This document shows, piece after piece, positions 1,001 to 58,487 of a stretch of 64,000 bases of DNA. Made by a program: the position numbers and the translations under genes. Position 1 is the first letter of the stretch, and each line of letters begins with the position of its first letter. The stretch covers positions 124,001 to 188,000 of the forward strand of contig JANQPL010000018.1 of assembly GCA_028289425.1 (NCBI GenBank). The letters run 5' to 3'. Below the pieces are notes generated by a model. That model was given only the letters and a program-made list of their open reading frames with translations. It was not told the DNA's origin and did not search any database. This DNA comes from Alphaproteobacteria bacterium. Its GTDB lineage: Bacteria; Pseudomonadota; Alphaproteobacteria; JANQMY01.

Positions 1001-1056
1001 CACGTTTGTCGGTGAACCGATGGTGCTTGTGAAAAATAGGCCGGACGCTGTTTGAA

Positions 1057-2986: not shown

Positions 2987-3075
2987 ACCAGCCGTCAAAA
3001 AAGATTTGACACCAAGAACAAAACATGAACACTTGGGCAGTCCATTCGACCACAATCTCACAGCCGGAGTGTTTT

Positions 3076-3174: not shown

Positions 3175-3189
3175 GCTCTTCCAACCCTC

Positions 3190-3211
3190 CGCCGACACGC
3201 ATGTGTCGGCG
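3190..3211 (+). terminator. perfect 9-bp stem-loop after lolD operon
   Basis: CGCCGACAC at 3190-3198 pairs perfectly with GTGTCGGCG at 3203-3211 around a GCAT loop. It lies between the last ORF of the lol operon and the dnaE start. There is no T-tract after it, so it is a weak candidate for an intrinsic terminator. It could instead be a processing or stability element, or part of the dnaE leader. Confidence 0.45.
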
Positions 3212-3275
3212 TCTGTCTGCAAGAACCAACCAAGAATCGCGATACAAAATCTCTCCACCAACCGGAGTACGTGAC

Positions 3276-6722: not shown

Positions 6723-6793
6723 CCAGTCGCGTGGACAGAAAAATAGCAGTTTTCTGCCGTTTCCTTAATGGACGTGACTGTAAATGTCGGGGC

Positions 6794-6822
6794 TTGCAAG
6801 AAAACCGGCAACTCCCTATAAC
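6794..6822 (+). promoter_or_regulatory. sigma-70-type promoter for rpsB-tsf
   Basis: TTGCAA at 6794-6799 and TATAAC at 6817-6822 are separated by exactly 17 bases. The predicted transcription start near 6829 leaves about 98 bases of leader before the rpsB start, and that leader contains the hairpin described next. Spacing and match to consensus are good for an alphaproteobacterial housekeeping promoter. Confidence 0.6.
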
Positions 6823-6847
6823 AGCCGCCATTCCGCACGCGGGTGAA

Positions 6848-6897
6848 CGGGCATGCCAGCCCGATCCGGTGTCTTGATTTTTTCAGGGCTATGCCCG
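6848..6897 (+). promoter_or_regulatory. bulged hairpin in rpsB leader, candidate autoregulatory element
   Basis: CGGGCAT at 6848-6854 pairs with ATGCCCG at 6891-6897. After a 3-base bulge (GCC), AGCCC at 6858-6862 pairs with GGGCT at 6886-6890. This gives a 12-bp stem with a bulge and a 23-base apical loop that includes a run of six T. It lies 30-80 bases before the rpsB start and downstream of the predicted promoter. Ribosomal protein S2 operons are autoregulated in other bacteria through leader structure; that this one is the same kind of element is inference. Confidence 0.45.
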
Positions 6898-6926
6898 CGG
6901 AGGCCAACCGGATAAGGAGAAATTGA

Positions 6927-7763
6927 ATGGCGTTGCCAGAATTTACCATGCGGCAGCTTCTAGAAGCTGGCGTGCACTTCGGACACCAGACCCATCGTTG
7001 GAATCCAAAAATGGGTCAATACATTTTCGGGGTCCGAAACAACATACATATCATTGACTTAGCTCAATCGGTTCCACTGTTGCATCAAGCTCTACTGGCG
7101 GTGCGAAACACTGTGGCGTCCGGTGGACGTGTGCTGTTTGTGGGCACGAAACGACAGGCGTCGGAGCCCATTTCCGATGCGGCTCAACGCTGCGCTCAGT
7201 ACTACATCAATCATCGCTGGCTTGGGGGCACGCTGACGAATTGGAAAACCATTTCCAACTCGATCAAACAGCTAAGGACACTGGAAGAGACATTGAGTGC
7301 CGAAGTTGTGGGCCGCACCAAGAAAGAACTGCTTCAATTGACTCGAGAGAAGGACAAGTTGGAGCGGGCGCTCGGCGGCATCAAAGATATGGGCGGCTTG
7401 CCGGATTTGATGTTCGTGATCGACACCAACAAGGAAGCCATTGCCATTCGGGAAGCTTCCAAGTTGGGCATACCGGTAGTGGCCGTACTCGATACCAATT
7501 GCGATCCGGACGGCATCACTTACCCGATTCCCGGCAATGACGACGCCTCCAGGGCCATCAGTCTCTATTGCGATCTCATGGCCCGGTCGGTAATCGACGG
7601 GATTTCTGAAAGCGCCCAGGCAGGCGGCGCCGATATTGGTGAGTCCGAGCAGCCGATTGCCGAGGAATTGCCGCCTGAGACCGAAGAAGCGGTCCCGCCG
7701 ACCGGGGACGCCGGTGCGGATACGGCTGCAGAGCCACCGGCAGAGGCGCCGGCGGCACAATAG
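6927..7763 (+). CDS. rpsB: 30S ribosomal protein S2
   Basis: Small-subunit ribosomal protein S2. The 278-residue protein begins with the family N-terminus ([20 protein letters not shown], here preceded by MALPEFT) and has the conserved [25 protein letters not shown] and [13 protein letters not shown] segments. It is longer than the roughly 240 residues of the E. coli protein because of a C-terminal tail from about residue 230, rich in Ala, Pro and Glu, as in many alphaproteobacteria. AAGGAG lies a few bases before the ATG. It heads the rpsB-tsf-pyrH-frr cluster. Confidence 0.97.
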
Positions 7764-7769
7764 GGCTTT

Positions 7770-7789
7770 CTTAGCATTAACCAGCTAAG
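7770..7789 (+). other. small hairpin between rpsB and tsf
   Basis: CTTAGC at 7770-7775 pairs with GCTAAG at 7784-7789 around an 8-base loop, followed by TGTTTGC. It could partly terminate or stabilise rpsB mRNA ahead of tsf. The stem is short and there is no clear T-tract, so this is weak. Confidence 0.25.
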
Positions 7790-7857
7790 TGTTTGCTAAC
7801 CGGAAAAATCGATGTGTCCCGTCGGTTCTCCACTCATCCAGGTAAAGAGGCAAATTG

Positions 7858-8796
7858 ATGACAGCGATATCGGCCAGCTTGGTGAAGCAGCTCCGAGACC
7901 AAAGTGGCGCGGGCATGATGGACTGCAAAAAGGCGCTCCAGGAAACGGACGGTGACCTGGAAGCGGCGGTGGATTGGCTGCGCACAAAGGGCCTCGCCAA
8001 AGCTGCCAAAAAAGCTGGGCGGGTCGCTGCCGAAGGGCTCGTGGGTGTTGCCGGGCAAGACTCCGGAACGGGCGCAATCGCAGTGGTTGTAGAGGTCAAT
8101 TCCGAAACGGATTTTGTTGCGCGTAACGATCAGTTTCAAAAACTTGTGGCTGATATAGCGGAAGCCGCGTTGTCTGTCGGTGGTGATATGGACAAGCTGG
8201 CCGCCGCGCCATATCCCGGAACGACCCAGACGATTTCGGATTACGTCACCGAAATGGTCGCAACAATCGGCGAAAACATGTCACTTCGCCGGTCGCAGGC
8301 GGTTACCGTCGAAAACGGTATTGTGGCGTCCTATGTGCATAATCAGATTGTGGACGGCCTTGGCAAAATTGGGGTCATTGTTGGTTTGGAGTCGGACGGG
8401 GACAAGTCGAAACTCTCCGCGTTCGGAAAGCAATTGGCCATGCATATTGCTGCGACAAACCCGTTGGCCGTCAGCGTTGAGGAGCTGGATGCGGAAACGG
8501 TCGAGCGTGAGCGGACCGTTTTAGCGGAACAGGCCCGGGAATCAGGCAAGCCGGACAACGTGATCGAAAAGATGATCGAAGGCCGTCTTCGGAAGTACTA
8601 CGAAGAAGTTGTCCTTCTGTCCCAAACCTTCGTCATCGATGGTGAAACACGTATCGAGAAAGCAGTGAAAAACGCTGAGGCAGAGGTTGGAAGTCCTGTG
8701 AAGATCACCGGCTTTTGCCGTTTTGCCCTGGGCGAAGGCATCGAAAAGGAAGAGGATGATTTTGCGGCCGAGGTGGCCGCTGCTGCATCCAATTAA
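7858..8796 (+). CDS. tsf: translation elongation factor Ts
   Basis: Guanine nucleotide exchange factor for EF-Tu. The protein has 312 residues. The N-terminal UBA-like domain carries the family motif [16 protein letters not shown], the core contains [14 protein letters not shown] with the TDFVARN motif that contacts EF-Tu, and the C-terminal subdomain ends with [18 protein letters not shown]. The frame opens with TTG then ATG at 7855/7858; the ATG was chosen, with AGAGG about 9 bases upstream. The gene follows rpsB by 94 bp as in most bacteria. Confidence 0.97.
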
Positions 8797-8836
8797 CATT
8801 TCACCATAACCCTGATTGCTCTTCGGAATTGAGTCC

Positions 8837-9577
8837 ATGGGATCCCCAGAAACCGGCTACAAGCGTGTCCTTCTCAAAGTTTCGGGGGAAGCGCTTATGG
8901 GATCCCAGGCGTTCGGGATCGATCTCGAGACCGTCGACAGAATTGCCGCGGACATTCAAGACGCCCACAAGTCCGGGATAGAAGTCTGTTTAGTCATCGG
9001 TGGTGGCAACATTTTCCGTGGTCTTTCGGGAGCGGCTCAGGGCATGGAGCGGGCGACCGCCGATTACATGGGCATGCTCGCCACTGTCATGAATGCGCTT
9101 GCGATGCAGAATGCGCTTGAGCGCCTTGATATTCAAACGCGGGTGCTTTCCGCCATTCCCATGACATCGGTGTGCGAACCCTATATTCGCCGCCGGGCAA
9201 TCCGCCATTTGGAGCGCGGCCGCGTAGTGATTTTCGCGGCCGGTACCGGGAACCCGTTTTTCACGACCGATACGGCAGCAGCCCTGCGCGCGTCTGAAAT
9301 GGGGTGCGACTGTCTGTTGAAAGGGACCCAGGTGGACGGTGTTTACAGCGCCGATCCAAAGATCGACCCCCAGGCGACCCGCTTCGAAAGGCTTACTTAT
9401 TTGGATGTGCTTTCGAAGGATCTGGGCGTCATGGACGCCCCGGCCGTCAGTCTGGCCCGGCAAAACGAGATCCCTATGATCGTGTTTTCCATTCACGATC
9501 GGGGCTCTTTAGGGAGCGTGTTAAACGGCACCGGACGGTGTACAATCATCTCATCGGACCCCGCAGAGAAGGGATAA
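8837..9577 (+). CDS. pyrH: UMP kinase
   Basis: Phosphorylates UMP to UDP in pyrimidine nucleotide synthesis. The 246-residue protein belongs to the amino-acid kinase fold: [12 protein letters not shown] at the N-terminus, the GGGNIFRG loop, and the nucleotide-binding segment [17 protein letters not shown] followed by [16 protein letters not shown]. The open frame begins at a TTG 21 bases upstream, but the ATG at 8837 gives the normal family start ([14 protein letters not shown]). It lies between tsf and frr, the standard order, and the stop is 6 bp before the frr start, so the two are co-transcribed. Confidence 0.96.
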
Positions 9578-9583
9578 GAAGCC

Positions 9584-10150
9584 ATGTCAGATGATAGCGA
9601 ACCGGATATTGACGACCTTCAAAGACGAATGGATGGAGCACTGACCGCCTTGAAGGCTGAGTTCGGCGGTTTAAGAACCGGACGCGCGTCAGTGAGCCTG
9701 CTCGAACCCGTCATGGTTGAGGCGTATGGCAGCCAAATGCCGATCAACCAGGTGGGGACTGTAGGCGTTCCCGAGCCGCGCATGTTGACGGTTCAGGTAT
9801 GGGACAAGGGATTGGTGGGCGCTACGGAAAAGGCCATCCGTAATGCAGGTCTAGGCATAAACCCGGTGGTCGATGGCCAGCTCATTCGCATTCCCATTCC
9901 TGAACTGAATGAAGAGCGGCGCAGAGAGCTCACAAAGATCGCGAGCAAATATGCGGAGCAAGCACGTGTCGCCGTGCGCAATGTCCGTCGCGATGGCATG
10001 GATGGGCTGAAACGGATGGAGAAAAACCATCAGATCAGTGAAGATGATCATAAGATCTATGCGGACGAAATTCAGTCAATGACCGACGAGTTGATCAAAA
10101 AGATCGATGATGCGCTGGGCGTCAAAGAAGCAGAGATTATGCAGGTGTAG
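9584..10150 (+). CDS. frr: ribosome recycling factor
   Basis: Splits the post-termination ribosome together with EF-G. The 188-residue length is typical. The three-helix bundle region reads [21 protein letters not shown] with the conserved LRTGRAS, then the beta-rich domain II ([21 protein letters not shown]), and the C-terminal [28 protein letters not shown] purine-rich ribosome site (GAGAAGGGATAAGAAG) precedes the ATG. The gene is tightly linked to pyrH and leads into uppS. Confidence 0.97.
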
Positions 10151-10203
10151 GAACTGTTGTGATCCTACGCTGACCGAATTCGCGTTAAGGAAAGGCCCGG
10201 AAG

Positions 10204-10935
10204 ATTAACAGCCCTGCAGAGGAGCTAGATCGCGGCTCAACGGTCCCGCACCACGTCGCCATTATCATGGATGGCAATGGCCGATGGGCTGCAGCCCGCC
10301 ATTTGCCGCGGCGCCTGGGCCATCGCCAAGGCGTCGAAACGGTGCGCAATATTGTGCGCGCCGCCGGTGATCTTGGGATTCGGTACCTCACTCTGTACAG
10401 CTTCTCGTCGGAAAACTGGAAACGTCCCGTGGACGAAGTCAACGATCTGATGGGGTTGTTGCAGGAGTTTGTCCGCCGGCATCTGAAGGAACTGGATGAG
10501 AATGGAGTAAATGTTCGGATCATTGGTGAACGTTCCGGTCTCGCGCCGCACATCATAGACATAATCGATAATGCGGAACGGCAAACCCGAAACAATGATC
10601 GGCTATTTTTGGTCATCGCATTTAACTACGGGGGCCGCACCGAGATCTTTGAGGCTGCCAAGAGATTTGCGAACGATGTTGCAATTGGCAAACTGGGCGT
10701 GGATGCGGTGTCACAGGCCGATTTCGAGTGTTATCTGGACACCAAAGGTATTCCGGATCCGGATCTTATTATCCGTACCAGTGGCGAACAGAGGCTGAGC
10801 AACTTTCTGCTATGGCAGGCAGCCTATGCGGAACTTTTCTTCTGTGAAAAGCTCTGGCCAGACTTTCGTAAGGAAGACCTAGAGCAGGCCGTCTCACATT
10901 TCGCGGGCCGGGAGCGCAGATTTGGCGCTCGATAG
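10204..10935 (+). CDS. uppS: undecaprenyl diphosphate synthase, probable AUU start
   Basis: Cis-prenyltransferase that makes the C55 lipid carrier for peptidoglycan and LPS. The core has the catalytic MDGNGRWA motif, [26 protein letters not shown] and near the C-terminus [15 protein letters not shown], all diagnostic. The first in-frame ATG (10267) is the methionine of MDGNGRW itself and would remove the HVAII strand that every family member has. The frame stays open upstream to a TAA at 10186, with no ATG, GTG or TTG. The only sensible start is ATT at 10204, eight bases after AAGGAAAGG, giving 243 residues, the normal length. A start-codon sequencing error is the alternative. Confidence 0.85.
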
Positions 10936-11006
10936 ACCGGCAGCAGCAAGTCGCAAGCCAATGCTCGGCGAGGCAATTTGTATGCTGATGATAAAGATAG
11001 ACTAGA

Positions 11007-11807
11007 ATGATCTCATACATTGCCGGAGCGGTGATGGCGGCGGGCGCCGCCTTTTGCATATTTGCGGGACTTTGGCCTTTTGCGGCTTTGGTGGCGGTTA
11101 TCGCAGCCCTTATGGCTTATGAGCACGCTACGATCGTTTTCGGAGAAAGGGCCCGTTTCGAATTGCTTTTGGAAGGCGGGGCACTTGCTGCAGCCCCTTT
11201 ATTGATGGCTGCGTCGATGCCCCTTCTGGCGATCGGACTTGTGTGCCTGATAGCCTTAGCAGTGACATTTCGGGCCAAAGCCAGCGGAACCTCGAAGCGT
11301 TGGGGTGGTGGAGCCGTCGTCTACATTGGGCTGGCGTTGATGGCGGTCGTTTGGCTACGCGACCAGCAAAACGGCGCACTGATTACGATCTGGCTTTTCG
11401 TTTCGATTTGGGCAACAGACAGCTTTGCTCAGATCGTCGGTCGCCGCGTTGGCGGTCCGAAACTTGCGCCCATCACCTCGCCCAACAAGACGTGGAGCGG
11501 TCTTATCGGCGGTATGGCAGGCGCGGCCACGGTTGGCGTGCTAACAGGCTTGGTGCTGCAAGCCGGCTTCGAAAACACCGTTGCGCTCGGCTTCCTGGGA
11601 CTGTTCTTGGCCCTAAGTGGCCAATTGGGAGATTTGCTGGAATCTGCCTTCAAGAGGCATTTCGACGTCAAAGATTCCAGCAACCTGATTCCCGGCCATG
11701 GCGGTGTCCTGGACCGGGTTGATGGGCTCGCGCTGGCGGCAATCATCCTTGTGGTGCTAATAGCAGGATTTGGCTCAGGCCCGTTCGAAACCGCCAGTTT
11801 TGGTTAA
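11007..11807 (+). CDS. cdsA: phosphatidate cytidylyltransferase
   Basis: Converts phosphatidic acid and CTP to CDP-diacylglycerol, the precursor of all phospholipids, in the inner membrane. The 266-residue protein has at least six hydrophobic segments and the CdsA signature near the end: SAFKRHFDVKDSSN followed by LIPGHGGVLDRVDGL, with the conserved KR, KD and DRxD residues. It follows uppS by 71 bp in the usual order. The start at 11007 has only a poor ribosome site. In most alphaproteobacteria dxr comes next; here it does not. Confidence 0.94.
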   Translation: MISYIAGAVMAAGAAFCIFAGLWPFAALVAVIAALMAYEHATIVFGERARFELLLEGGALAAAPLLMAASMPLLAIGLVCLIALAVTFRAKASGTSKRWGGGAVVYIGLALMAVVWLRDQQNGALITIWLFVSIWATDSFAQIVGRRVGGPKLAPITSPNKTWSGLIGGMAGAATVGVLTGLVLQAGFENTVALGFLGLFLALSGQLGDLLESAFKRHFDVKDSSNLIPGHGGVLDRVDGLALAAIILVVLIAGFGSGPFETASFG

Positions 11808-12110
11808 ATTTACCTAACCTGAAAGTTCTGACGCGGAAGTGACCCGGAATGGGTCGGTTTGCTTGCAATGGCGGGTGCCGCCCCCTACTATCCGGGCTTC
11901 TGCTTGAAAGAAAATTGCCTTCAAAAATCGAGCAAATCTCGGGGAAAGCGGAAACGGGTTAGGGTGGTGTCCAATGTTTAGTCGGCGTACAGCTTCAAGC
12001 GAACCACCGAATTGACAGCGCATGTCTGGCTGCGAATGCCGGGCTGCACCTGAAGCCTCCGAGCCGGGATTTCGCGGCGACGGATGGACATTCGATTTGG
12101 AAGTTAAAAC
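11808..12110. other. 303-bp intergenic gap at the usual dxr position
   Basis: No credible coding region on either strand. The stretch contains the weak hairpin at 11840 and otherwise unremarkable sequence running to the rseP ribosome site (GGAAG, 8 bases before the ATG). Nothing in it resembles a dxr remnant. It probably holds the promoter for the rseP-bamA-lpx cluster, but I could not pick out convincing -35 and -10 boxes. Confidence 0.6.
11840..11859 (+). terminator. hairpin after cdsA
   Basis: GACCC at 11841-11845 pairs with GGGTC at 11851-11855 around GGAAT, extended by a T-G pair, and is followed by GGTTTG. It is a plausible but weak intrinsic terminator for the rpsB-to-cdsA cluster, 33 bases after the cdsA stop. 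Confidence 0.4.
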
Positions 12111-13568
12111 ATGGAACTGCTTGGCTACGTCATTCCATTCTTGTTCGTCCTAACGATTGTCGTGTTTTTCCACGAATTGGGTCATTTTTCCGTAGCGCGT
12201 TGGTTCGATGTCCGTGTCGACACGTTTTCAATTGGATTTGGCGGTAAGATATTCGGCTGGGTCGATCGAAAGGGCACTGTTTGGAAAATCGGTTGGATCC
12301 CACTCGGAGGCTACGTCAAGTTCCATGGTGACGAAAGTGTCGCCTCCACTCCCGATCGTGAGAAGTTAGGCGAGATTGCTTCCGGCGCCACCTCGCCACT
12401 TCAGACCGCAGGTTCGGAAAGTCATTTGGCCGAAGCGCAGGGTATGTCGGCCGCCGAGCAAGAGCAGTGTTTCCATTTCAAGCCACTTTACCAGCGAGCG
12501 TTGATCGTCGCTGCTGGCCCGATCGCAAACTTCATCCTGGCCGTTTTCATTTTCGCAATTTTGTTCAGCGTCGTCGGCCAGAGAATGATTCCCCCTCGGA
12601 TCGACGCCATCATCGACGACAGCCCCGCTCAGCTAGCCGGGTTTTTGGTCGGCGACGTGGTCAAGGAAATAAACGGCCGCAAGATTACCAATTTTTCTCA
12701 AGTGCACGAGATCGTCAGCATAAGCGCAAATGAGCCTTTGACGATTGTTGTTGAGCGTCAAGGTGAACTTGTCGAAATCCGGGTAATGCCCGAGCAGGTC
12801 ACAGTGACAGACCAATTCGGGAATACGCACAAGGTCGGACAGATTGGTGTCGAACGCGTGTTACCGCCAGTTGTCGATGCGCTTAGTCCTGCCGGTCCAG
12901 CAGAGACGGCAGGGCTGCAACCGGGAGATATTGTGCGACAGATCAATGGCGAGGAAATAAACAGTTTCCTGGCAATGCAACAGGTCGTGGAGAAAAGTGC
13001 AGGTATACCGCTTCAATTCACGATCGAGCGGGACGGCAGACTGATTGAAGTCGAGATTACGCCGGCCCCCGTAAAGATTACCGATAGAGACGGCAAAGAA
13101 GTTGACGTGGGCAGGATCGGCATCCAAGGACACGACAACATTACCGATTATGACATTGTCCGTGTCAATTTCTTCGAAGGGCTCGTGATGGGGGTCGGTC
13201 GGACTTGGTTCATCATCGAAAGGACATTCGATTTTCTCGGTGGGCTATTCGTTGGGCATGAAGATGCAAGCCAACTGAGCGGACCGTTGGGAATTGCAAA
13301 AGTTTCGGGTGAGGTGGCTCAAGGGGGCCTCGTTCCCTTGATATCGCTCGCTGCGATCCTGTCGGTGAGTATCGGTCTTCTGAATTTGTTCCCGATTCCC
13401 ATGCTTGATGGTGGGCACCTGCTCTATTATGCCTATGAGGCAGTGGCTGGACAGCCATTGGGCGAGCGGGCACAGGAAGTTGGGTTTAGAATAGGGCTGG
13501 CCTTGGTGATTTCCTTAATGCTGTTTGCGACCTGGAATGATCTCGTAAAGTTTAGGATTTTCGGTTAG
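12111..13568 (+). CDS. rseP: RseP/MmpA-type site-2 zinc metalloprotease with two PDZ domains
   Basis: Intramembrane protease that cleaves anti-sigma factors and signal-peptide remnants. Zinc motif HELGH is at residues 21-25 in the first membrane helix, and the second metal motif PMLDGGH is near residue 433 in a C-terminal helix. Between them are two consecutive PDZ repeats of about 87 residues each (roughly 161-247 and 251-338). Both have the same architecture: GDVVKEINGRKI versus GDIVRQINGEEI, and VGQIGV versus VGRIGI at the end. At 485 residues it is longer than typical single-PDZ alphaproteobacterial homologues. A 50-residue polar insert follows the first helix region (about 75-125). It heads the outer-membrane biogenesis cluster with bamA. 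Confidence 0.94.
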   Translation: MELLGYVIPFLFVLTIVVFFHELGHFSVARWFDVRVDTFSIGFGGKIFGWVDRKGTVWKIGWIPLGGYVKFHGDESVASTPDREKLGEIASGATSPLQTAGSESHLAEAQGMSAAEQEQCFHFKPLYQRALIVAAGPIANFILAVFIFAILFSVVGQRMIPPRIDAIIDDSPAQLAGFLVGDVVKEINGRKITNFSQVHEIVSISANEPLTIVVERQGELVEIRVMPEQVTVTDQFGNTHKVGQIGVERVLPPVVDALSPAGPAETAGLQPGDIVRQINGEEINSFLAMQQVVEKSAGIPLQFTIERDGRLIEVEITPAPVKITDRDGKEVDVGRIGIQGHDNITDYDIVRVNFFEGLVMGVGRTWFIIERTFDFLGGLFVGHEDASQLSGPLGIAKVSGEVAQGGLVPLISLAAILSVSIGLLNLFPIPMLDGGHLLYYAYEAVAGQPLGERAQEVGFRIGLALVISLMLFATWNDLVKFRIFG

Positions 13569-13628
13569 AAGACAGCCAACAAAAACAAAAGTCGCTTCGT
13601 TTAGGGGTAAAGTGGGTAAGAGCTGCAT

Positions 13629-15944
13629 ATGACACGCGTGACCACCGTTGTGGGGGCAATTCTCTGTCTGTTTGTCGCAGGCGTTCTATCGGGGTTTGTT
13701 TCCGGCGCTGCCGCCCAGCAATCGGTTATTCAACAGATCCGTGTTGAAGGGAATCAGCGGATTGAAGCGGCGACCGTTGTCTCTTACCTGACGATTGCGC
13801 CCGGTGACCCCGTCGATGCCGCCGAGATCGACCGTTCGCTGAAGACACTTTTTGTTACCGGTCTTTTCGCGGACGTGACCTTGCGCCAGGAAGGCGACGT
13901 TCTTGTGGTCAGTGTGGTCGAGAACCCGATCATCAATCGCGTCGCCTTTGAAGGAAACCGGAAACTTGATTCGGACGATTTCGAAGAAGAAATCCAGCTC
14001 AAGCCGCGCATTGTCTATACCCGCTCGAAAGTGCAAACGGACGTTCAACGTATCATTGAATTGTATCGGCGTTCCGGACGGTTTGCCGCGACCGTAGAAC
14101 CCAAAGTCATACAACTGCCACAGAACCGGGTCGACCTGGTCTTTGAAATCAATGAAGGACCGGTGACAGGTGTTCGGCGCATCAACTTTCTTGGGAACAA
14201 GAAATACAGTGCGGGCCGGTTGCGCCAGGAAATTGCTACCAAAGAAACCAGGTTTTGGCGTTTTCTCACGTCGAACGACAATTACGACCCCGACAGGCTG
14301 ACGTTCGACCGGGAGGTGTTGCGGCGTTTCTATTTGGAGCGCGGCTATGCCGATTTCCGGGTGATTTCGGCCGTTGCGGAATTGACCCGAGACGGCAAGG
14401 ATTTTTTCATCACCTTCACTGTCGATGAAGGGGAGCGGTATCGCATAGGTGAGGTGAACATCAACACCCAGCTTGCGGAACTCGACCCTGAAACGCTCCG
14501 TCCTCTGATAAGATTTGAGAGCGGCGAAATTTATAACGCAGAGCTCATTGACGACACGATTGATGCATTAACGTTTGCTGCGGGTGTTCGCGGTTTTGCA
14601 TTTGTTGATGTGCGGCCAAGGGTTCGCCGCGATCGAGACAACCAACTGATTAACATCACCTTTGAGGTCAATGAGGGACCGCGCGTCTACATCGAACGGA
14701 TCGATATCGTTGGCAATACGCGCACCTTGGATCGTGTCATTCGCCGTCAAATCAGTTTGGTTGAGGGTGATGCGTTTAACCGTGTACTGATTGATCGTTC
14801 GAAAGCGGCAATTCGTGGATTGACGTTCTTCAGCGAAGTCGAAATCAATGAAGAGCCGGGGTCCGCCGCCGACAGAACCGTATTGACGGTTGAGGTCGAA
14901 GAACAATCGACGGGTGAACTTTCGATCGGTGCGGGCTTTTCGTCGACGGATAGCATTATCGGCGACTTCAGCGTGTCAGAGCGGAACCTGCTCGGTCGCG
15001 GGCAGTTCATCCGCTTGCGCGTTTCTGTGAGCCGGCGCCGCCAGCAAGTGGACATCCGATTTACGGAACCATATTTCCTTGGGAGAAATCTGGCCGCTGG
15101 TTTTGACTTGTTCCGCATTCGAACGGATTTTGAGGATGAATCGGGGTTTGACACCGACAGTATCGGTTTGGGACTTCGAGCGGGTTTCCCGTTAACCCGC
15201 TTCGGTAAGATCTCGACGCGATACACGCTTCGGCAGGATGACATCCGGGTCGATGACTTTTCCTGTCAGTTCGGGTTCATCTCGCTGTCTGTGTGTTCCG
15301 CAGCAGGGGAAACCACGTCATCGATCTTGGGGTACACCTATTTTTACGACCGCCGGGACGATCCAATCGAGCCGACGCGCGGCTGGGATTTCAACCTGTC
15401 ACAGGATGTTGCCGGTGTTGGTGGTACCGAAGCGTATCTACGCTCTGAAGTCCGCGCCAATTGGTACCATCCGATACCGATATTCGGTGCCGAGAACATT
15501 ATTGCAAATCTGAGAGCGACCGGCGGTTACATCTTCGGCCTTGGCCGCGATGTTCGCCTAAATGACCGTTTCTTCCGTGGGGGGCCCTCGTTCCGCGGCT
15601 TTGAGACCTCCGGTATTGGCCCACGAGATGTGGTCACCAGTGATGCTGTTGGTGGCCAGTTGTTCGGGATCGGTACCGCTGAGATCGTCTTTCCTCTGGG
15701 CTTGCCGGACGAATTTGGCATAAAAGGGGCGATTTTTTCGGATGTTGGTACGCTGGGCATTGTCGACGAAGATCAATTCACGACAAATGTTGACGATTCG
15801 CTCGGCTTAAGGTTATCCGTGGGCTTTAGTGTTCTGTGGGATTCTCCTTTTGGGCCTATTCGCCTGGACTTCGCAAATCCGCTGATACGGGAACCCTTCG
15901 ATCAGGAAGAAGCGTTCCGATTTAGCGCTGGTACAAGGTTTTAG
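13629..15944 (+). CDS. bamA: outer membrane protein assembly factor BamA
   Basis: Omp85-family insertase of the BAM complex. The 771-residue protein begins with a signal peptide (about residues 1-30, ending near SGAAAQQ). Five POTRA repeats of about 75 residues follow, recognisable from INxVxFEGNRKL, VRRINFLGNKKY and IERIDIVGNTRT. The C-terminal beta-barrel includes the RGF motif region (FFRGGPSFRGFE) and ends FRFSAGTRF with the C-terminal phenylalanine needed for barrel insertion. A pair of cysteines 14 residues apart lies in one barrel loop (near 15263-15300). It is followed after 2 bp by the skp homologue, so the two are co-translated. Confidence 0.97.
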   Translation: MTRVTTVVGAILCLFVAGVLSGFVSGAAAQQSVIQQIRVEGNQRIEAATVVSYLTIAPGDPVDAAEIDRSLKTLFVTGLFADVTLRQEGDVLVVSVVENPIINRVAFEGNRKLDSDDFEEEIQLKPRIVYTRSKVQTDVQRIIELYRRSGRFAATVEPKVIQLPQNRVDLVFEINEGPVTGVRRINFLGNKKYSAGRLRQEIATKETRFWRFLTSNDNYDPDRLTFDREVLRRFYLERGYADFRVISAVAELTRDGKDFFITFTVDEGERYRIGEVNINTQLAELDPETLRPLIRFESGEIYNAELIDDTIDALTFAAGVRGFAFVDVRPRVRRDRDNQLINITFEVNEGPRVYIERIDIVGNTRTLDRVIRRQISLVEGDAFNRVLIDRSKAAIRGLTFFSEVEINEEPGSAADRTVLTVEVEEQSTGELSIGAGFSSTDSIIGDFSVSERNLLGRGQFIRLRVSVSRRRQQVDIRFTEPYFLGRNLAAGFDLFRIRTDFEDESGFDTDSIGLGLRAGFPLTRFGKISTRYTLRQDDIRVDDFSCQFGFISLSVCSAAGETTSSILGYTYFYDRRDDPIEPTRGWDFNLSQDVAGVGGTEAYLRSEVRANWYHPIPIFGAENIIANLRATGGYIFGLGRDVRLNDRFFRGGPSFRGFETSGIGPRDVVTSDAVGGQLFGIGTAEIVFPLGLPDEFGIKGAIFSDVGTLGIVDEDQFTTNVDDSLGLRLSVGFSVLWDSPFGPIRLDFANPLIREPFDQEEAFRFSAGTRF

Positions 15945-50287: not shown

Positions 50288-51688
50288 ATGTCGGAAAAGA
50301 ACTACGACCTGGTGGTGATTGGCTCCGGGCCCGGCGGATATGTTGCAGCCATCCGCAGTGCCCAACTAGGTATGAAAACGGCCGTCATCGAGCGGGAACA
50401 TTTGGGCGGCATATGCCTCAATTGGGGATGTATTCCAACCAAGGCGCTTTTGCGCTCGTCTGAGATCTTTCACACATTGCACCGCCTGGAGGAATTCGGC
50501 TTGAGCGCAAAGGAGCTCTCCTTCGACATAGAAAAGGTGGTTCAGCGGAGTCGAGCGGTCGCGGATCAACTCTCGAACGGTGTCAAATTCCTGTTGAAGA
50601 AGAACAAAGTCGATGTGATCGACGGTGAGGCCTCATTTGACACACCAAATTCGATTAGTGTTCGAAGTAAGAAAGGGGAAACATCGGTTAGTGCCAACAA
50701 CACGATCATTGCTACGGGCGCCCGCGCGCGAACACTTCCAGGTTTGGAGCCCGACGGAAAACTGATCTGGACCTACAAAGAGGCGATGGTTCCAGATGTC
50801 ATGCCAAAATCTCTTTTGGTTATTGGGTCCGGTGCGATCGGAATAGAATTCGCGAGTTTCTTCCAAACACTCGGGGCTCAGGTGACCGTGGTTGAGGTGC
50901 TCGACCGGGTTTTGCCGGTCGAAGACGCTGAAATCTCAGAATTGGCGGCAAAGGCCTTCAAGAAGCAGGGGATGGAAATCCTCACCGGCGCGAGCGTTGA
51001 GTCTTTGAAGCCATCCGGAAAATCCGTAACCGCTACGATTAAGACCACGACAGGCGAAGAACAGTCCAAAGATTTTGAGCGGGTGATCCTGGCGATCGGT
51101 ATCACGGGCAATACGGAGAATATTGGTCTGGAGAAGATCGGCGTTAATGTGGATCGTGGCCACATTGTCATCAATGAATGGGGAGAGACCGGCGTTCCCG
51201 GTGTCTACGCGATCGGTGATGTTGCCGGCCCACCCTGGCTGGCCCACAAAGCAAGCCATGAAGGGGTTGTCTGCGTTGAGAAAATCGCGGGCGTTCAGGG
51301 GCTTCATCCCCTCAATATGTCGAACATTCCGGGGTGTACCTACTGCCACCCACAAGTAGCTTCGGTAGGGCTTACCGAAGAAAAAGCGCGGTCTGAAGGG
51401 TATAAGGTTAACGTTGGCCGGTTTCCCTTTTTGGGAAACGGAAAGGCGATTGCTCTTGGCGAGCCGGAAGGATTGGTAAAAACGGTTTTTGATTCAAAAA
51501 CGGGGGAACTTCTTGGCGCCCACATGATTGGGGCGGAGGTCACAGAACTCATTCAGGGGTACACGGTGGCGAGAACGCTCGAGTCGACCGAAGCGGATCT
51601 GATGCACACGGTATTTCCGCACCCGACGCTTAGTGAGATGATGCATGAATCTGTGTTGGATGCCTTTGGAAAAGTGATCCATATCTAG
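50288..51688 (+). CDS. lpdA: dihydrolipoamide dehydrogenase, E3 component
   Basis: Reoxidises dihydrolipoamide with NAD. From the ATG at 50288 it has 466 residues, the standard length. It has the FAD-binding GSGPGGYVAAIRSAQLG, the redox disulfide GGICLNWGCIPTKALL, the NAD-binding GSGAIGIEFASFFQTLG, and the C-terminal HPTLSEMMHESVLDAFGK with the catalytic His-Glu pair. The frame is open from 50117, but those residues overlap the preceding gene and lack family similarity. It is the last gene of the pdh operon here. Confidence 0.97.
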   Translation: MSEKNYDLVVIGSGPGGYVAAIRSAQLGMKTAVIEREHLGGICLNWGCIPTKALLRSSEIFHTLHRLEEFGLSAKELSFDIEKVVQRSRAVADQLSNGVKFLLKKNKVDVIDGEASFDTPNSISVRSKKGETSVSANNTIIATGARARTLPGLEPDGKLIWTYKEAMVPDVMPKSLLVIGSGAIGIEFASFFQTLGAQVTVVEVLDRVLPVEDAEISELAAKAFKKQGMEILTGASVESLKPSGKSVTATIKTTTGEEQSKDFERVILAIGITGNTENIGLEKIGVNVDRGHIVINEWGETGVPGVYAIGDVAGPPWLAHKASHEGVVCVEKIAGVQGLHPLNMSNIPGCTYCHPQVASVGLTEEKARSEGYKVNVGRFPFLGNGKAIALGEPEGLVKTVFDSKTGELLGAHMIGAEVTELIQGYTVARTLESTEADLMHTVFPHPTLSEMMHESVLDAFGKVIHI

Positions 51689-51716: not shown

Positions 51717-51872
51717 CCTATAATCCGCATTAAGTCCCGTCACTAAGGCATTGAAATATAATACATTAATTATGTGACTTGATAAGCCGTGGTCTGAACA
51801 TAATATTTACATTAATGAACTAATGATCAGTGGCCGCAATAGTGGCGCACTCATGCTTATGGTCGGTGGTTC
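51717..51872. other. AT-rich gap between lpdA terminator and Tad operon trailer
   Basis: No convincing ORF. Bases 51718-51830 are clearly richer in A and T than the rest of the window and include two TATAAT words (51719-51724 and 51757-51762) without matching -35 boxes. A repeated word ACATTAAT is also present. It could hide a small RNA or be a relic of insertion; nothing further can be supported. Confidence 0.4.
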
Positions 51873-51935
51873 CTCTCCAGGAAAGGTTTAAAGCCTCAGT
51901 CATCCCAAACTTGGCCCTTTCTCGGGGCCGCCGGC
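51873..51935 (-). repeat. trailer repeat copy A, terminator of first Tad operon
   Basis: About 63 bp that match 54674-54743 closely. The core at 51890-51917 is identical over 28 bases. Read on the minus strand it contains GGCCC and GGGCC as inverted repeats around CGAGAAA, followed by AAGTTT. It begins about 75 bases after the stop of the last gene of the operon at 52010, so it probably terminates that operon. Confidence 0.6.
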
Positions 51936-52009
51936 CGCCAGCAGAACTTCCCCAATAAGTCGAAGAACTCCTGATACGTACAAATCAAATCGTGTACGTC
52001 AGAATTGGC

Positions 52010-52564
52010 TTATGGCTCGTAGGCAATTTGGGAGATGAGCCGAGGCCGGCGGATGGCGAATTGATCCGCATCGACGACACCCGACCAAAGATCCAGGAAG
52101 ACCGGCTGAAACTCCGCATCCAGCTCCGCTAGGATGATGCTCTCGCCGACGGGGATTGGAGGCAGAGAGATCTCAAAATCGTTGGGTAGTGTTCCGGAAC
52201 GTTCCAGCCCGTCTTCATTCGCGACACTCCAAAGGACCTGGTAGTTGCCGTCCGCATCTTGTTCGATGCTGCTGAGGATGACCTCCACCTGTCCCGGCAC
52301 TGCGTAGCGGTCCAGCAGAGCATCGGCCGTCACGAACATGGCATCGCGATTGGCCGCATCCAACACCTGAAGGCGGCTGGTAAGGTCAGCCACGATATCA
52401 ACCGCGTTGGAGGCGCGCCGCACACCACGATAAGCGTCAAACCCGTTTACCGAGAACATCAACAGCGAGACCAGCACCGGTGCGATAATCGCAAACTCCA
52501 CCGTGGCAGCGCCACGTGCATTTCCAACCAGCCTATTGAGGGCATTACCGAAGAAATTGATCAT
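52010..52564 (-). CDS. TadE-family pilus assembly protein (third gene, proximal copy)
   Basis: A 184-residue pseudopilin-like protein. The N-terminus has ARGAATVEFAIIAP: Gly followed by Glu at the fifth position, as in TadE/TadF proteins processed by prepilin peptidase, then a membrane helix (VLVSLLMFSVNGFDAYRG). The rest is a soluble periplasmic domain without known motif. The frame is open from 52654, but the ATG at 52564 has AGGAAG 7 bases upstream and removes 30 residues that overlap the preceding gene. Its paralogue is at 54772-55323, with the same RRASxAVD and ALLDRYA segments. Confidence 0.85.
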   Translation of the reverse strand: MINFFGNALNRLVGNARGAATVEFAIIAPVLVSLLMFSVNGFDAYRGVRRASNAVDIVADLTSRLQVLDAANRDAMFVTADALLDRYAVPGQVEVILSSIEQDADGNYQVLWSVANEDGLERSGTLPNDFEISLPPIPVGESIILAELDAEFQPVFLDLWSGVVDADQFAIRRPRLISQIAYEP

Positions 52565-52574
52565 GGGGTGCTTC

Positions 52575-53123
52575 CTAGAAGGGCTCGTTGACAAACGCCA
52601 GCGACGTGACGATCGCATAATTGTCGTTTGCCGTTTTGGGGAGGGCCAAACCAAGGCCGAGACCCGGCGTGAGGATGGGAACTGTTACGCACACACGAAC
52701 AAAAACGATTTCCTGTTGTGCGCCCGGGTTAAACGTGGTGGTTGGATTAATGTCGTCGCCGCTTTCATCGCAAACCGCATCTGTTTCCGGAAGCGCATCG
52801 AATCCCGTAACGGTCTGAACCTCAACTTCAATACTATCCGCACAGGAAACAAAACCGGCCGTCCCCGCACAGATCATGTTTGCTACATCGGTCTGGGTGA
52901 GTCCGCCGGACTGTGCTGCACCCGTATAGATTTGACGTGAGGCTGCCTGGGTCGCGTCCTCGATGATGGCGATACGGGTGAAAAGCAGACCCGCTTCGAA
53001 CAAGGAAAACAGGAAACCGAAGAAAACCGGGCTCACCATGGCAAACTCGACGGCGGCGCCGCCTTTGTTGTCGGCGGTAAGGCGTTTCACCTTCCGCCGC
53101 ACTTTTCTGTAGATACTAAACAT
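52575..53123 (-). CDS. TadE-family pilus assembly protein (second gene, proximal copy)
   Basis: A 182-residue TadE-like pseudopilin. The basic N-terminus ends in KGGAAVEFAMVSP with the prepilin-type Gly and Glu spacing, then a membrane helix (FFGFLFSLFEAGLLF) and EDATQAASRQIYTGAAQ, which is typical of TadE. The periplasmic part has four cysteines (MICAGTAGFVSCAD, AVCDE, RVCVTV) likely to form disulfides, and ends with ILTPGLGLGLALPK. It is exactly as long as its paralogue at 55337-55885 and matches it throughout. It lies 10 bp upstream of the third gene and 8 bp downstream of the vWA gene. Confidence 0.88.
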   Translation of the reverse strand: MFSIYRKVRRKVKRLTADNKGGAAVEFAMVSPVFFGFLFSLFEAGLLFTRIAIIEDATQAASRQIYTGAAQSGGLTQTDVANMICAGTAGFVSCADSIEVEVQTVTGFDALPETDAVCDESGDDINPTTTFNPGAQQEIVFVRVCVTVPILTPGLGLGLALPKTANDNYAIVTSLAFVNEPF

Positions 53124-53131
53124 CGGTTTAC

Positions 53132-54478
<1,347 letters not shown>

Positions 54479-54535
54479 GAGTCAATGTCCACACCGTTGA
54501 ATTCACATATCGGTGCGGTTGCAGCAACAAGCGTG

Positions 54536-54556
54536 CCGGTGGCTCAAAGCCGCCGG
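54536..54556 (-). promoter_or_regulatory. hairpin in leader of proximal vWA gene
   Basis: CCGGTGGC (54536-54543) and GCCGCCGG (54549-54556) pair with one mismatch around TCAAA, 58-78 bases upstream of the vWA start at 54478. It may lie in the mRNA leader or act as an operator; the rest of the gap 54479-54673 shows no ORF and no clear promoter. Confidence 0.3.
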
Positions 54557-54673
54557 ATTTGACTAAAGTTATCGCCAAGCGTTTCAGTATGGGGCAGGCT
54601 GTCCGTGCACTGTGTTGCAATATCGAACAGGTACCAATGTGTCGCTAAAGGTTAATTTTTGTTAGTTCTTTCG

Positions 54674-54743
54674 CTCTCCATGGAGAAGGTTTCTTGAAAG
54701 CCTCAGTCATCCCAAACTTGGCCCATATCTCGGGGCCGACGGC
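54674..54743 (-). repeat. trailer repeat copy B, terminator of second Tad operon
   Basis: About 70 bp matching copy A (51873-51935), identical over 54697-54724. On the minus strand GGCCC and GGGCC bracket CGAGATAT, then AAGTTT. It begins 29 bases after the stop of the gene ending at 54772, so each Tad operon ends with its own copy, which suggests the duplication included the trailer. Confidence 0.6.
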
Positions 54744-54771
54744 TTTTTATGTAGTTTGGCGTTCCCTCATT

Positions 54772-55323
54772 TTACTCGTACGCAATTTTCGCCAGAAGGC
54801 GCGGTCGGGAGATGGAGATTTGATCTGCATCCACAGCGCCAACCCACAAATCTTGAAATGTGGGGCGGAATGAAAAGTCCAGCTCCGTCAATATGACGCT
54901 TTCGCCGTCGGGAATGGCCGGGAGTTCGCTGGCCACCTCTGCCGGCAAAAACTCGCCATGAGCGGTGGCGTTATCATTCGCGACGCTCCAGAGAATGACG
55001 TAATTGTCGTCTTCGTCCTGTTCCACGCTCGAAATGGTCATGCCAAGGGTATTGCCCGTTGCATATCTGTCGAGAAGGGCTTCAGCCGTGACAAAGAGAG
55101 CATCGCGCTGAGCATCATTCATGACCTGTTTGCGGCTGACCAAATCACTCACGGTATCTACGGCGACGGAAGCACGCCGAAGGCCGCGATAAGCATCAAA
55201 TCCGTTCACGGAAAAGATAAGCAATGCCACCAGCACCGGGCCGATTATCGCAAATTCAACGGTCGCGACGCCACGAATGTTGCGCACAAATTTGCGGATG
55301 AGTTGAGAGATTGTCGAGGTCAT
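54772..55323 (-). CDS. TadE-family pilus assembly protein (third gene, distal copy)
   Basis: A 183-residue pseudopilin-like protein, paralogue of 52010-52564. The N-terminus shows IRGVATVEFAIIGP with Gly and Glu correctly spaced, then the membrane helix VLVALLIFSVNGFDAYRG. The conserved FVTAEALLDRYA and a C-terminal VDADQISISRPRLLAKIAYE follow. The ATG at 55323 has TAAGGGG about 8 bases upstream and falls 13 bp after the stop of the preceding TadE gene; the longer frame from 55362 would overlap that gene. Confidence 0.85.
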   Translation of the reverse strand: MTSTISQLIRKFVRNIRGVATVEFAIIGPVLVALLIFSVNGFDAYRGLRRASVAVDTVSDLVSRKQVMNDAQRDALFVTAEALLDRYATGNTLGMTISSVEQDEDDNYVILWSVANDNATAHGEFLPAEVASELPAIPDGESVILTELDFSFRPTFQDLWVGAVDADQISISRPRLLAKIAYE

Positions 55324-55336
55324 TGTTGGTCGCCCC

Positions 55337-55885
55337 TTAGAATGGCTCGTTTTCGAAGGCAAGTGACGTGACGATCGAATACTTGTTGCCGGCGGATTTC
55401 GGAAGCGCCAGGCCTAGCCCTAAACCGGGAGTTAGGATCGGCACGGTCACACAAACGCGTACAAAGGTTGTTTCGGTTGTTGCCCCCGGCGTGTATTCCA
55501 CCACCGGATTGATCTCGTCGTCGCTTTCGTCGCAGACCGCATTGGTATTTGGAATGGACGAGAAATCCGTAATGGTTTGGACTTCGAGGGTGATGCTGTC
55601 CGCGCAGGAAATAAACCCGTACGTGTTGTCACAGATAATTTGCTTTAGGTCGTCTTGGGTGACACCGCCGGTTTGGGCAGCGCCAGTATAAATCTGCCGC
55701 GACGCTGTTCGCGTAGCGTCTTCAACCAATGCGATCCGCGTAAACAGCAGCCCAGCTTCGACCAGCGAAAATATGAAGGCGAAGAACAACGGGCTTACCA
55801 AGGCAAACTCGACCGCTGTGGCGCCGCGGCTGTTGCCGCTTAAGCGCTTGATATTGCGGCGGAGGTTTCCAAACAATCTCAACAT
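55337..55885 (-). CDS. TadE-family pilus assembly protein (second gene, distal copy)
   Basis: A 182-residue TadE-like pseudopilin with SRGATAVEFALVSP at the prepilin-type site, a membrane helix (FFAFIFSLVEAGLLF) and EDATRTASRQIYTGAAQ. Its four cysteines lie in the same places as in the copy at 52575-53123, and the C-terminus RVCVTVPILTPGLGLGLALP is the same. It is 10 bp from the vWA gene upstream, in the same operon. Confidence 0.88.
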   Translation of the reverse strand: MLRLFGNLRRNIKRLSGNSRGATAVEFALVSPLFFAFIFSLVEAGLLFTRIALVEDATRTASRQIYTGAAQTGGVTQDDLKQIICDNTYGFISCADSITLEVQTITDFSSIPNTNAVCDESDDEINPVVEYTPGATTETTFVRVCVTVPILTPGLGLGLALPKSAGNKYSIVTSLAFENEPF

Positions 55886-55895
55886 GGACTCTTCC

Positions 55896-57224
55896 TCAGC
55901 TCGTCACGCGGAGCTTCGCGATGCTTTCAAAAATGGTGTCGAATTCATCCGCCAAGCTGCTGTCACCGGAAAGCAGATACTGGCTGGCATTGTTGGGGCA
56001 CTGGCTGAGCAGTTGGTCTGCTTCACCGCCTTCATCGATCTGAAAGCCGATGGCCCAGACGGACACATCGTTGGCTTTTGCAGCGTTGCAGACAGCGAGA
56101 AAACGATTCCCAGCGACGGCTTTAGAAACATCCGCATCGTGAGGATTGATCTTACCGTCCGTCATCACGACAAGGATCTTATAGGCTTCATCTCCACCGA
56201 GTTGGGTGGGGCGGTCGGCGAATACTGCGTCGCCGCCAAGCCGGCCACGCCAGCTATCGGAAAGAGCATTGTAACCCCACATGGTCGCCACATGCATGGC
56301 GGTTTCGCCACTGGCAACATAGCTGCCGATTTGGTTCGTCAGCGTTGTCACGTTCTGCGATAGAAAGATGGGTTCCACACCGGGACGGCAATCATCCTTG
56401 CCATTGTCTTCATTTGGGGAAGCCGTTTCGTTGCGACCGTTGAATGGGAGCAGACTGCCGTCAAAATCGGTTGATTCATACTCAAGACAACCGTTCCATA
56501 CCGCAACCGCCGCGACTTCCTTCTCTTCATCGGTGAAGTCGTCGATGCTGCAGCCAGGGCCCGCGCTTTCACAAAGATGATCTTCGATTGCATCTTCGTC
56601 GATTGAGTCTTTGTCTAAATAGTTTGAGAAAGTCGCTTTGTTGAGCGTTACGTTGCTTGAATAGGGAACGACACTGATTGATGTCGAATCGGCCGGTGAC
56701 GCGTCCAGCATTTCGGTCACGAAGTTGGCGGCATCCGTGCGCAGCGCAGCGATCTTGTCGCCACTCATCGATCCGGAAACGTCAAGCACCAAAGAAATTT
56801 CCACATTGGCGATGCCGTGTGTCGCACTCGATGTCACCGCAACGGGCACCGTATGAAACCCAATAACATCGACAAAGTCCGTATCGATATTGAAATTCGC
56901 CGCGACTTCTATGTTCGAAAACCGACCTGTCTTTTCGGCCGTTACATTCAGCGTGATGGAAGCAGGATCGATAATGGTGGGGTCCACATTGGTGTCCAGA
57001 TACTCACGGATCACGGTTTCGGGATCGCGTGGGTTTGTCAGGGAGGCCGCGGCCAAGATGCCGGCATCGAGCGCGCCGAGAACTTCGCTGCGCGCGCCTG
57101 CGATTTTCATTAAATCGACGGCGCCACCGGCCAGAACCAGCAACGGCACGGCCAACAAAGCGGACAGAAGGGCGATGTTGCCGCGTTTGCTTCGGCTGAA
57201 GCGCGCAATAACGGAAGGCTGCAT
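55896..57224 (-). CDS. TadG-like von Willebrand factor A protein, distal copy
   Basis: A 442-residue paralogue of 53132-54478 with the same layout. The N-terminal anchor is KRGNIALLSALLAVPLLVL, and GALDAGILAAASLTNPRDPE follows. The vWA domain begins near 140 with DVSGSMSG, then SVVPYSSNVTLN, TAMHVATMWGYNALSD and VVMTDGKINPHD. The region corresponding to the poly-Asp insert is an ordinary acidic loop (DKDSIDEDAIEDHLCESAGP). It is the first gene of the distal operon; AGGGGG is 7-8 bases before the ATG. It is divergent from lipA with 285 bp between that contain no other gene. Confidence 0.88.
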   Translation of the reverse strand: MQPSVIARFSRSKRGNIALLSALLAVPLLVLAGGAVDLMKIAGARSEVLGALDAGILAAASLTNPRDPETVIREYLDTNVDPTIIDPASITLNVTAEKTGRFSNIEVAANFNIDTDFVDVIGFHTVPVAVTSSATHGIANVEISLVLDVSGSMSGDKIAALRTDAANFVTEMLDASPADSTSISVVPYSSNVTLNKATFSNYLDKDSIDEDAIEDHLCESAGPGCSIDDFTDEEKEVAAVAVWNGCLEYESTDFDGSLLPFNGRNETASPNEDNGKDDCRPGVEPIFLSQNVTTLTNQIGSYVASGETAMHVATMWGYNALSDSWRGRLGGDAVFADRPTQLGGDEAYKILVVMTDGKINPHDADVSKAVAGNRFLAVCNAAKANDVSVWAIGFQIDEGGEADQLLSQCPNNASQYLLSGDSSLADEFDTIFESIAKLRVTS

Positions 57225-57509: not shown

Positions 57510-58487
57510 ATGGCCGTCATCTACGAAAGTGTTAAAGAGGCAGCTGAGCAACGGGACCGGCCACGGCATCCCGAAAAGATGTCAAATCCTGATTCCCCGG
57601 TACTCCGCAAACCACCATGGCTTCGGGTGAAAGCGCCCACATCTCCCGGTTATCAAGGTACACGGAAGATCGTTCGCGACCACAATTTGGTGACTGTTTG
57701 CGAGGAAGCGGGTTGCCCGAATATCGGCGAGTGCTGGGAGAAGAAACACGCCACCATGATGATCATGGGCGATACCTGCACCCGTGCCTGCGCGTTCTGC
57801 AATGTCAAAACAGGCCTGCCAGAACCGCTCGATGCGAATGAGCCCGACAATGTCGCCAAGGCTGTTCAAAAGCTTGGTCTATCACATGTGGTGATCACTT
57901 CGGTCGATAGAGATGATTTGGCGGATGGTGGGGCCGCTCATTTTGCGCACGTAATTGCGGAGATCCGCGCTGCATCGCCGTCAACCACCATTGAAGTTTT
58001 GACACCCGATTTCCTGCGCAAGGACGGTGCCCTTGACGTTGTCGTTAACGCAAAACCGGACGTCTTTAACCACAATCTGGAGACCGTACCCGCGCTTTAT
58101 CTCCGTGTACGGCCTGGTGCGCGATATTTTGCCTCTCTTCGTTTGCTGCAAAATGCCAAAGAGATCAATCCCAGCATTTTCACCAAGTCCGGCATTATGG
58201 TGGGCCTCGGTGAATCCCGAGAAGAAGTGATGCAAGTGATGGACGATCTGCGAGCGGCGGATGTGGATTTTCTGACCATTGGGCAGTATCTACAGCCCAC
58301 GCGCAAGCATCACCCCATTGATCGGTTTGTGACGCCGGAAGAGTTTAAGGCGTTTGAAGCAACGGCCTATGCCAAAGGCTTCTTGATGGTATCCGCAAGT
58401 CCGCTAACCAGATCGTCTCATCATGCGGGCGATGATTTTCAAAGGCTCAAGGCGGCGCGATCGAAGGCGTCGGGACAGGCGCACTAA
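57510..58487 (+). CDS. lipA: lipoyl synthase
   Basis: Radical SAM enzyme that inserts sulfur into octanoyl-lysine, making the lipoyl group of PdhB and PdhC above. The 325-residue protein has the auxiliary cluster [12 protein letters not shown], the radical-SAM motif CTRACAFC, and a C-terminal [14 protein letters not shown] with the serine that ligates the auxiliary cluster. The start at 57510 includes RPRHPEK, which is conserved in relatives, and so was preferred over ATG 57582. It is separated from lpdA by the Tad-like cassette, whereas the two are usually neighbours. Confidence 0.96.

What the first reader, a model, noticed from the sequence alone, without database searches (positions are those of the whole stretch)
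51873..57224. Tandem duplication of a TadG-TadE-TadE operon between lpdA and lipA
Two complete minus-strand operons lie head to tail. Each has a vWA protein (448 and 442 residues), a TadE-like protein (182 and 182) and a second TadE-like protein (184 and 183), with near-identical spacing and the same trailer. All four TadE proteins keep the prepilin-peptidase Gly and Glu spacing. No TadA, B, C, V or Z gene is nearby. The cassette splits a normally adjacent lpdA-lipA pair. Two divergent copies suggest separate structures or heteromeric partners rather than a recent neutral duplication.
Basis: partly seen in the sequence, partly recalled or inferred. Interest (0 to 1): 0.65.

Follow-up and report, generated by a model that had tools for sequence, protein, structure and literature searches.

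The report
Tandem spare tips for Tad pili
Two side-by-side, strongly diverged sets of three genes probably make alternative end-pieces for a bacterial adhesion pilus whose motor is encoded elsewhere in the genome, and beside them sits an unexplained stretch of non-coding DNA that has stayed letter-perfect between two species while everything around it changed.

Summary
Two complete minus-strand TadG-TadE-TadF operons lie head to tail between lpdA and lipA. They are 53-66% identical in protein, under purifying selection, and each ends in the same trailer. The genome has a complete Tad/Cpa locus with its own TadE/F/G on contig C4, and a second Tad engine on C19 with no TadE/F/G nearby, so the window operons are orphan tip cassettes. 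The only congener held (a MAG from coral skeleton) has ONE such operon at the same place. The core cassette is 90% identical between the two species, the orphan one only 64%. The best reading is alternative, fast-evolving pilus-tip cassettes, like the interchangeable Myxococcus Tips and the orphan tadGEF of Bradyrhizobium. This is a known kind; the tandem pair and a 26-Asp tract in one vWA domain are variant features. It has a conserved promoter-like sequence, folds better on the + strand, matches no Rfam family and was found only in this genus: a candidate regulatory RNA, function untested. The order of duplication and speciation is unresolved.

The parts
55896..57224 (-). TadG of copy b, 442 aa, Tad + vWA domains
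55337..55885 (-). TadE of copy b, 182 aa, minor pilin
54772..55323 (-). TadF (second TadE-like) of copy b, 183 aa
54676..54746 (+). Diverged copy of the conserved element between the operons; keeps 28 nt identical to the congener (54697-54724) and has a terminator-like hairpin on the + strand
53132..54478 (-). TadG of copy a, 448 aa, Tad + vWA domains
53765..53842 (-). Tract of 26 consecutive Asp codons (GAC/GAT mixed) in a loop of the TadG a vWA domain
52575..53123 (-). TadE of copy a, 182 aa, minor pilin
52010..52564 (-). TadF (second TadE-like) of copy a, 184 aa
51857..51943 (+). 87-nt non-coding element, identical in the congener; long hairpin on the + strand; candidate regulatory RNA
51768..51810 (+). 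Second conserved non-coding block (42 of 43 identical) with TTGATA-N16-TAATAT at 51779-51806, a promoter-like sequence towards the element
50288..51688 (+). lpdA, flanking gene
57510..58487 (+). lipA, flanking gene

Best explanation
The two operons are orphan, alternative tip cassettes for a Tad (type IVc) pilus. Each encodes one vWA-bearing TadG and two minor pilins, TadE and TadF. These should be processed by the genome's prepilin peptidase, form a heterotrimer that starts the pilus and rides on its tip, and expose the TadG vWA domain, whose metal site and variable insertion contact the surface. The motor and the Flp pilin come from elsewhere, most likely the C4 Cpa locus, whose own TadE/F/G is the housekeeping tip. 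An old duplication gave two cassettes that evolve several times faster than the core tip, as expected of parts that face a changing target. Shown here: gene content, domains, metal-site residues, the engines elsewhere, purifying selection, rapid divergence. Inferred: tip position, trimer, shared pilus, ligand binding. The conserved element beside them is most likely a small or antisense RNA read from the + strand that regulates the convergent operon(s); that part is much less certain (about 0.35).
For: TadG/E/F domains and order. Only three Tad-vWA proteins and five TadE hits in the genome, the third set sitting in a complete Cpa/Tad locus on C4. D148, S152, T308 and D356 of the vWA metal site invariant in ten TadGs. 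Model of TadG b: long N-terminal helix, pilin-like sheet, vWA domain; best PDB fold matches are the pilus-tip adhesins SpaC and Mfa5; sequence profile also finds Mfa5 and the vWA pilin PilB. Core cassette 89.5% identical between the species, orphan cassettes 55-64%; purifying selection. Precedents: interchangeable TadE/F/G-like Tips in Myxococcus (PMC12075869), CpaL-CpaJ-CpaK tip model in Caulobacter (PMC12607857), orphan tadGEF needed for root adhesion in Bradyrhizobium (PMC10934763). Element: 87-nt identity, promoter-like block, + strand fold.
Against: No expression or protein data. Complex formation was not modelled (monomer predictions only, mean pLDDT about 72). The C19 engine without local tips could be the partner instead. 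TadG lacks the Glu5 of ordinary pilins. The element's fold rests on three sequences without any change on both sides of a pair, and there is no clear terminator after the copy next to lpdA.
Confidence: 0.72

Rival explanations
1. The orphan cassettes are the dedicated tips of the second Tad engine (C19), which has its own Flp pilin and motor but no TadE/F/G at its locus.
For: C19 has Flp, CpaB, CpaC, CpaE, CpaF, TadB, TadC, TadD and no TadE/F/G; the congener has the same engine (L112) and also an orphan cassette.
Against: In G140 and G208 the TadE pairs beside C19-type engines are not recognisably related to a/b; the TadEs outside the genus that are closest to a/b score higher with the C4 TadE, and most lie beside C4-type engines.
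Confidence: 0.25
2. The two copies are partners in one mixed tip: subunits of a and b assemble together rather than as alternatives.
For: TadE is the best conserved of the three between copies (66% against 59% and 53%), which would allow sharing.
Against: Each copy keeps a full set of three genes; the congener manages with one set.
Confidence: 0.1
3. The repeated element is a recombination relic or integration site: direct repeats around operon a mark how it was gained in this genome or lost in the congener.
For: Operon a is bounded by the two element copies and the congener has one operon and one element.
Against: A relic would not stay identical over 87 nt between species whose neutral sites are saturated; there is a conserved promoter-like block and a strand bias of folding. 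No mobile-element match. It may still have served as the crossover point.
Confidence: 0.15
4. The element is read on the minus strand and encodes a short peptide beginning MTEA (MTEALNLSWRGTTDH... beside lpdA and in the congener, MTEAFKKPSPWRAKE... between the operons).
For: Reading the minus strand, the length difference between the two copies up to the shared Trp-Arg codons is 6 nt, which keeps the frame (read by eye).
Against: Identity covers third codon positions and about 40 nt upstream of the ATG alike, the spacing of a Shine-Dalgarno-like sequence is poor, and the C-terminal ends differ completely.
Confidence: 0.1

Closest known systems
Orphan tadGEF (cluster 4) of Bradyrhizobium diazoefficiens USDA 110 (Mongiardini 2016, cited in PMC10934763 and PMC12918737)
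   Same: tadG, tadE, tadF away from the engine clusters of an alphaproteobacterium; loss impairs adhesion to roots
   Different: One set rather than a tandem pair; no linked conserved element reported in the passages read; sequence relation not tested here
Kil Tip1-Tip4 complexes (KilL, KilM, KilN) of Myxococcus xanthus (PMC12075869)
   Same: Several TadE/F/G-like sets in one genome, interchangeable on one Tad pilus
   Different: The KilN head is described as without structural homology in the PDB, not vWA; predatory system; sets dispersed
CpaJ-CpaK-CpaL of Caulobacter crescentus (PMC12607857)
   Same: Two minor pilins plus a large pilin fused to vWA, modelled at the pilus tip; CpaL called the TadG ortholog
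   Different: Single set serving one Tad system; CpaL is larger, with a beta-rich insertion
SpaC of Lactobacillus rhamnosus, Mfa5 of Porphyromonas gingivalis, PilB of Streptococcus sanguinis
   Same: vWA domain at or on a pilus tip
   Different: Other pilus classes; similarity limited to the vWA part

Membership tests
TadG/E/F minor-pilin cassette of Tad (type IVc) pili | TadE-domain pilins with a prepilin peptidase site (G-X4-E) | tested here: met
   PF07811 in three of four over the cut-off and one at 22.3 against 22.9 bits; motif in all four
TadG/E/F minor-pilin cassette of Tad (type IVc) pili | Large TadG with Tad N-terminal domain and vWA domain | tested here: met
   PF13400 and PF00092 over cut-off in both; model
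TadG/E/F minor-pilin cassette of Tad (type IVc) pili | A Tad engine with Flp pilin and peptidase in the same genome | tested here: met
   C4 complete, C19 without peptidase or tips
TadG/E/F minor-pilin cassette of Tad (type IVc) pili | Located at the pilus tip and needed for piliation or adhesion | not testable with these tools
   Needs microscopy and mutants
Metal-binding (MIDAS) vWA domain | DxSxS, Thr and Asp metal-site residues | tested here: met
   LDVSGSM at 148-152, T308, D356 in copy b; D, S152, T and D invariant in ten TadGs; metal binding itself not tested
Any Rfam RNA family (for the conserved element) | Match above the family's gathering score | tested here: not met
   None in the window; permissive search of the interval gives only weak, unrelated hits
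Conserved structured RNA | Covariation supporting the fold | tested here: inconclusive
   Three sequences, no change on both sides of a pair, three one-sided consistent changes, outer helix missing in copy b
Bacterial small RNA gene | Own promoter, transcript and terminator | tested here: inconclusive
   Promoter-like block conserved; no clear terminator after the copy next to lpdA; transcript not testable here

The most novel reading that the evidence does not exclude
The element is an undescribed regulatory RNA that travels with a Tad tip cassette: read from its own promoter towards the operon, it base-pairs with the 3' ends of both tip mRNAs (the b trailer keeps a 28-nt perfect complement) and sets which tip, and how much of it, is made, so that one pilus is fitted with alternative vWA heads, one of them carrying a poly-Asp patch suited to calcium or mineral binding in a lineage whose only known relative lives in coral skeleton.
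Probability: 0.12. Interest if true: 0.75.

Novelty: new variant of a known kind. Interest (0 to 1): 0.45.

Why it matters
It would extend exchangeable Tad tips, shown so far in a predatory myxobacterium, to an alphaproteobacterium with clear vWA heads. It also gives a compact natural set (one core tip, two orphan tips, two engines) in which tip-engine pairing and tip specificity can be tested. The 87-nt element is a concrete candidate for RNA control of tip choice; the brief literature search made here turned up no such control.

Tried and rejected
Chance repeat for the trailer: rejected. Known RNA family or tRNA: none. Mobile or phage origin of the element: no match in viral contigs, plasmids or phages. 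A wider family: the exact 19-mer in 84,980 genomes found only the congener plus a chance hit inside a coding gene; a covariance model in 385 same-class genomes found only the genus. The 3-mismatch hit in G056 is about what chance gives. Dating the duplication by synonymous divergence: saturated. Rooting by trees: unresolved (the tree holds one wrongly read row, L042, so only its a/b/G001 part is used; the tree has an internal translation choice by longest open frame and two suspect long rows, and is used only for the a/b/G001 clade and the distance of the C19-local pairs). Trans targets of the element core at translation starts of Tad, Flp, lpdA and lipA genes: nothing clearly better than shuffles (the very stable pairing with the b 3' end there simply follows from the repeat). 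The first lpdA adjacency script used a wrong reading frame and was redone.

Full report
What is there. On the minus strand between lpdA (ends 51688) and lipA (starts 57510) lie two complete operons, b (57224-54772, next to lipA) and a (54478-52010, next to lpdA). Pfam gives PF13400 and PF00092 for both large proteins and TadE for the small ones, with weak TadF for one of the second pilins. The order matches the core locus, where a TadE ending in NEPF is followed by a second pilin, so the operons are TadG-TadE-TadF. Copies a and b are 53%, 66% and 59% identical in TadG, TadE and TadF.

The rest of the machine is elsewhere. The genome has exactly three Tad-vWA proteins and five TadE hits: a, b and a third set on contig C4. 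C4 carries a complete Cpa/Tad locus: Flp pilin, CpaA peptidase, CpaB, C, D, E, F, TadB, C, D. A second engine on C19 has its own Flp, CpaB, CpaC, CpaE, CpaF, TadB, TadC and TadD but no TadE/F/G. The two engines are 25-49% identical. The window operons are therefore orphan tip cassettes in a cell with two engines, one of which lacks local tips.

The relative. One congeneric genome was held (G001). By element position and contig length its contig is JANQMY010000163.1, MAG PL25b_bin.64; the sample name PL25b belongs to a study of Porites lutea coral skeleton (PMC9868349). It has ONE operon at the same lpdA-lipA place on a single contig, no other a/b-type TadE, and both engines. Concatenated TadE+F+G identity is 89.5% for the core cassette between the species but only 64.0% for b-G001, 57.6% for a-b and 55.1% for a-G001. 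The orphan cassettes thus evolve several times faster than the core one, while the copies stay under purifying selection (dN/dS 0.136 for TadE and 0.151 for TadF a-b; TadG a-b saturated). a, b and G001 form one clade against other TadEs (100/100). Inside it the data do not decide between duplication before or after the species split (AU p 0.365 for b+G001).

The trailer. Aligned with the congener, window 51857-51943 is an unbroken run of 87 identical bases in a 69% background. It is the longest exact run in any region compared between the two species; the next is 69 nt inside the C19 Flp pilin gene. Fourfold-degenerate sites in lpdA are 35% identical, so neutral sequence would retain almost nothing: the block is under strong constraint. 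A second block, 51768-51810 (42 of 43 identical), contains TTGATA-N16-TAATAT on the + strand. The bases between the blocks are not conserved, but the predicted RNA of about 130 nt has a small 5' hairpin and the same long 3' hairpin in both species. The + strand of the element folds to -38.5 kcal/mol (z -3.0) against z -0.2 for the - strand, which argues for a + strand RNA that faces the operons. The copy between the operons (54676-54746) keeps 28 nt identical to the congener and most inner pairs, but not the outer stem; its own fold is unremarkable (z 0.19) and it ends in a terminator-like hairpin. No Rfam family matches, and nothing outside the genus was found.

Function. TadG models show a long N-terminal helix, a pilin-like sheet and a vWA domain. 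The metal-site positions D148, S152, T308 and D356 are invariant in ten TadGs, and Foldseek's top PDB matches include the pilus-tip adhesins SpaC and Mfa5. Literature supplies the mechanism: in Myxococcus four TadE/F/G-like sets are interchangeable tips of one Tad pilus (PMC12075869); Caulobacter CpaL is modelled at the tip with CpaJ and CpaK (PMC12607857); in Bradyrhizobium an orphan tadGEF is needed for root adhesion (PMC10934763). Alternative tips for a shared pilus is therefore the best reading. The C4 pilus is the likelier partner: TadEs outside the genus that are closest to a/b mostly lie beside C4-type engines and score higher with the C4 TadE than with a/b, while the TadE pairs at C19-type engines of other genomes are not recognisably related. 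The tip-less C19 engine keeps the rival alive.

Poly-Asp. TadG a carries 26 consecutive Asp (GAC/GAT mixed) at residues 213-238, in a low-confidence loop of the vWA domain; b and the congener lack it. A TadG of another genome (L099) has a separate poly-Asp/poly-Gly insert elsewhere in the vWA insertion region. That such a tract binds calcium or carbonate mineral is general knowledge plus inference, not shown.

Verdict. As tip cassettes they are a new variant of a known kind. The conserved element is the least explained part and the reason the score is not lower.

Noticed in passing
L093 (G000:C19:207000-226000), 4852-13875: A second Tad engine with its own Flp pilin but no TadE/F/G and no CpaA; the same type is tip-less at its locus in the congener (L112) and in G220 and G308, while G140 and G208 have local TadE pairs.
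   Followed up: partly
L022 (G001:C506), 979-4234: The congener has a further cassette of a TadE and two Tad/Tad_C proteins without vWA (two tandem 432/437-aa paralogues) that has no counterpart among the TadE hits of the window's genome.
   Followed up: no
L099:10423-12054: TadG of another alphaproteobacterium carries a poly-Asp plus poly-Gly insert in its vWA insertion region, so acidic low-complexity inserts arise more than once in TadG heads.
   Followed up: no
L093:4866-4934 against L112: 69 identical bases between the species inside the C19 Flp pilin gene, unusual where synonymous sites are close to saturated.
   Followed up: no
window 51764-51807: The conserved promoter-like block holds an inverted repeat ATTATGT...ACATAAT that could be an operator or opposed promoters instead of a single + strand promoter.
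   Followed up: no
L102 (G340:C23:88000-107900), 7426-11296: Another same-class genome has two TadE genes on opposite strands flanking one TadG at its engine locus, another local doubling of tip parts.
   Followed up: no
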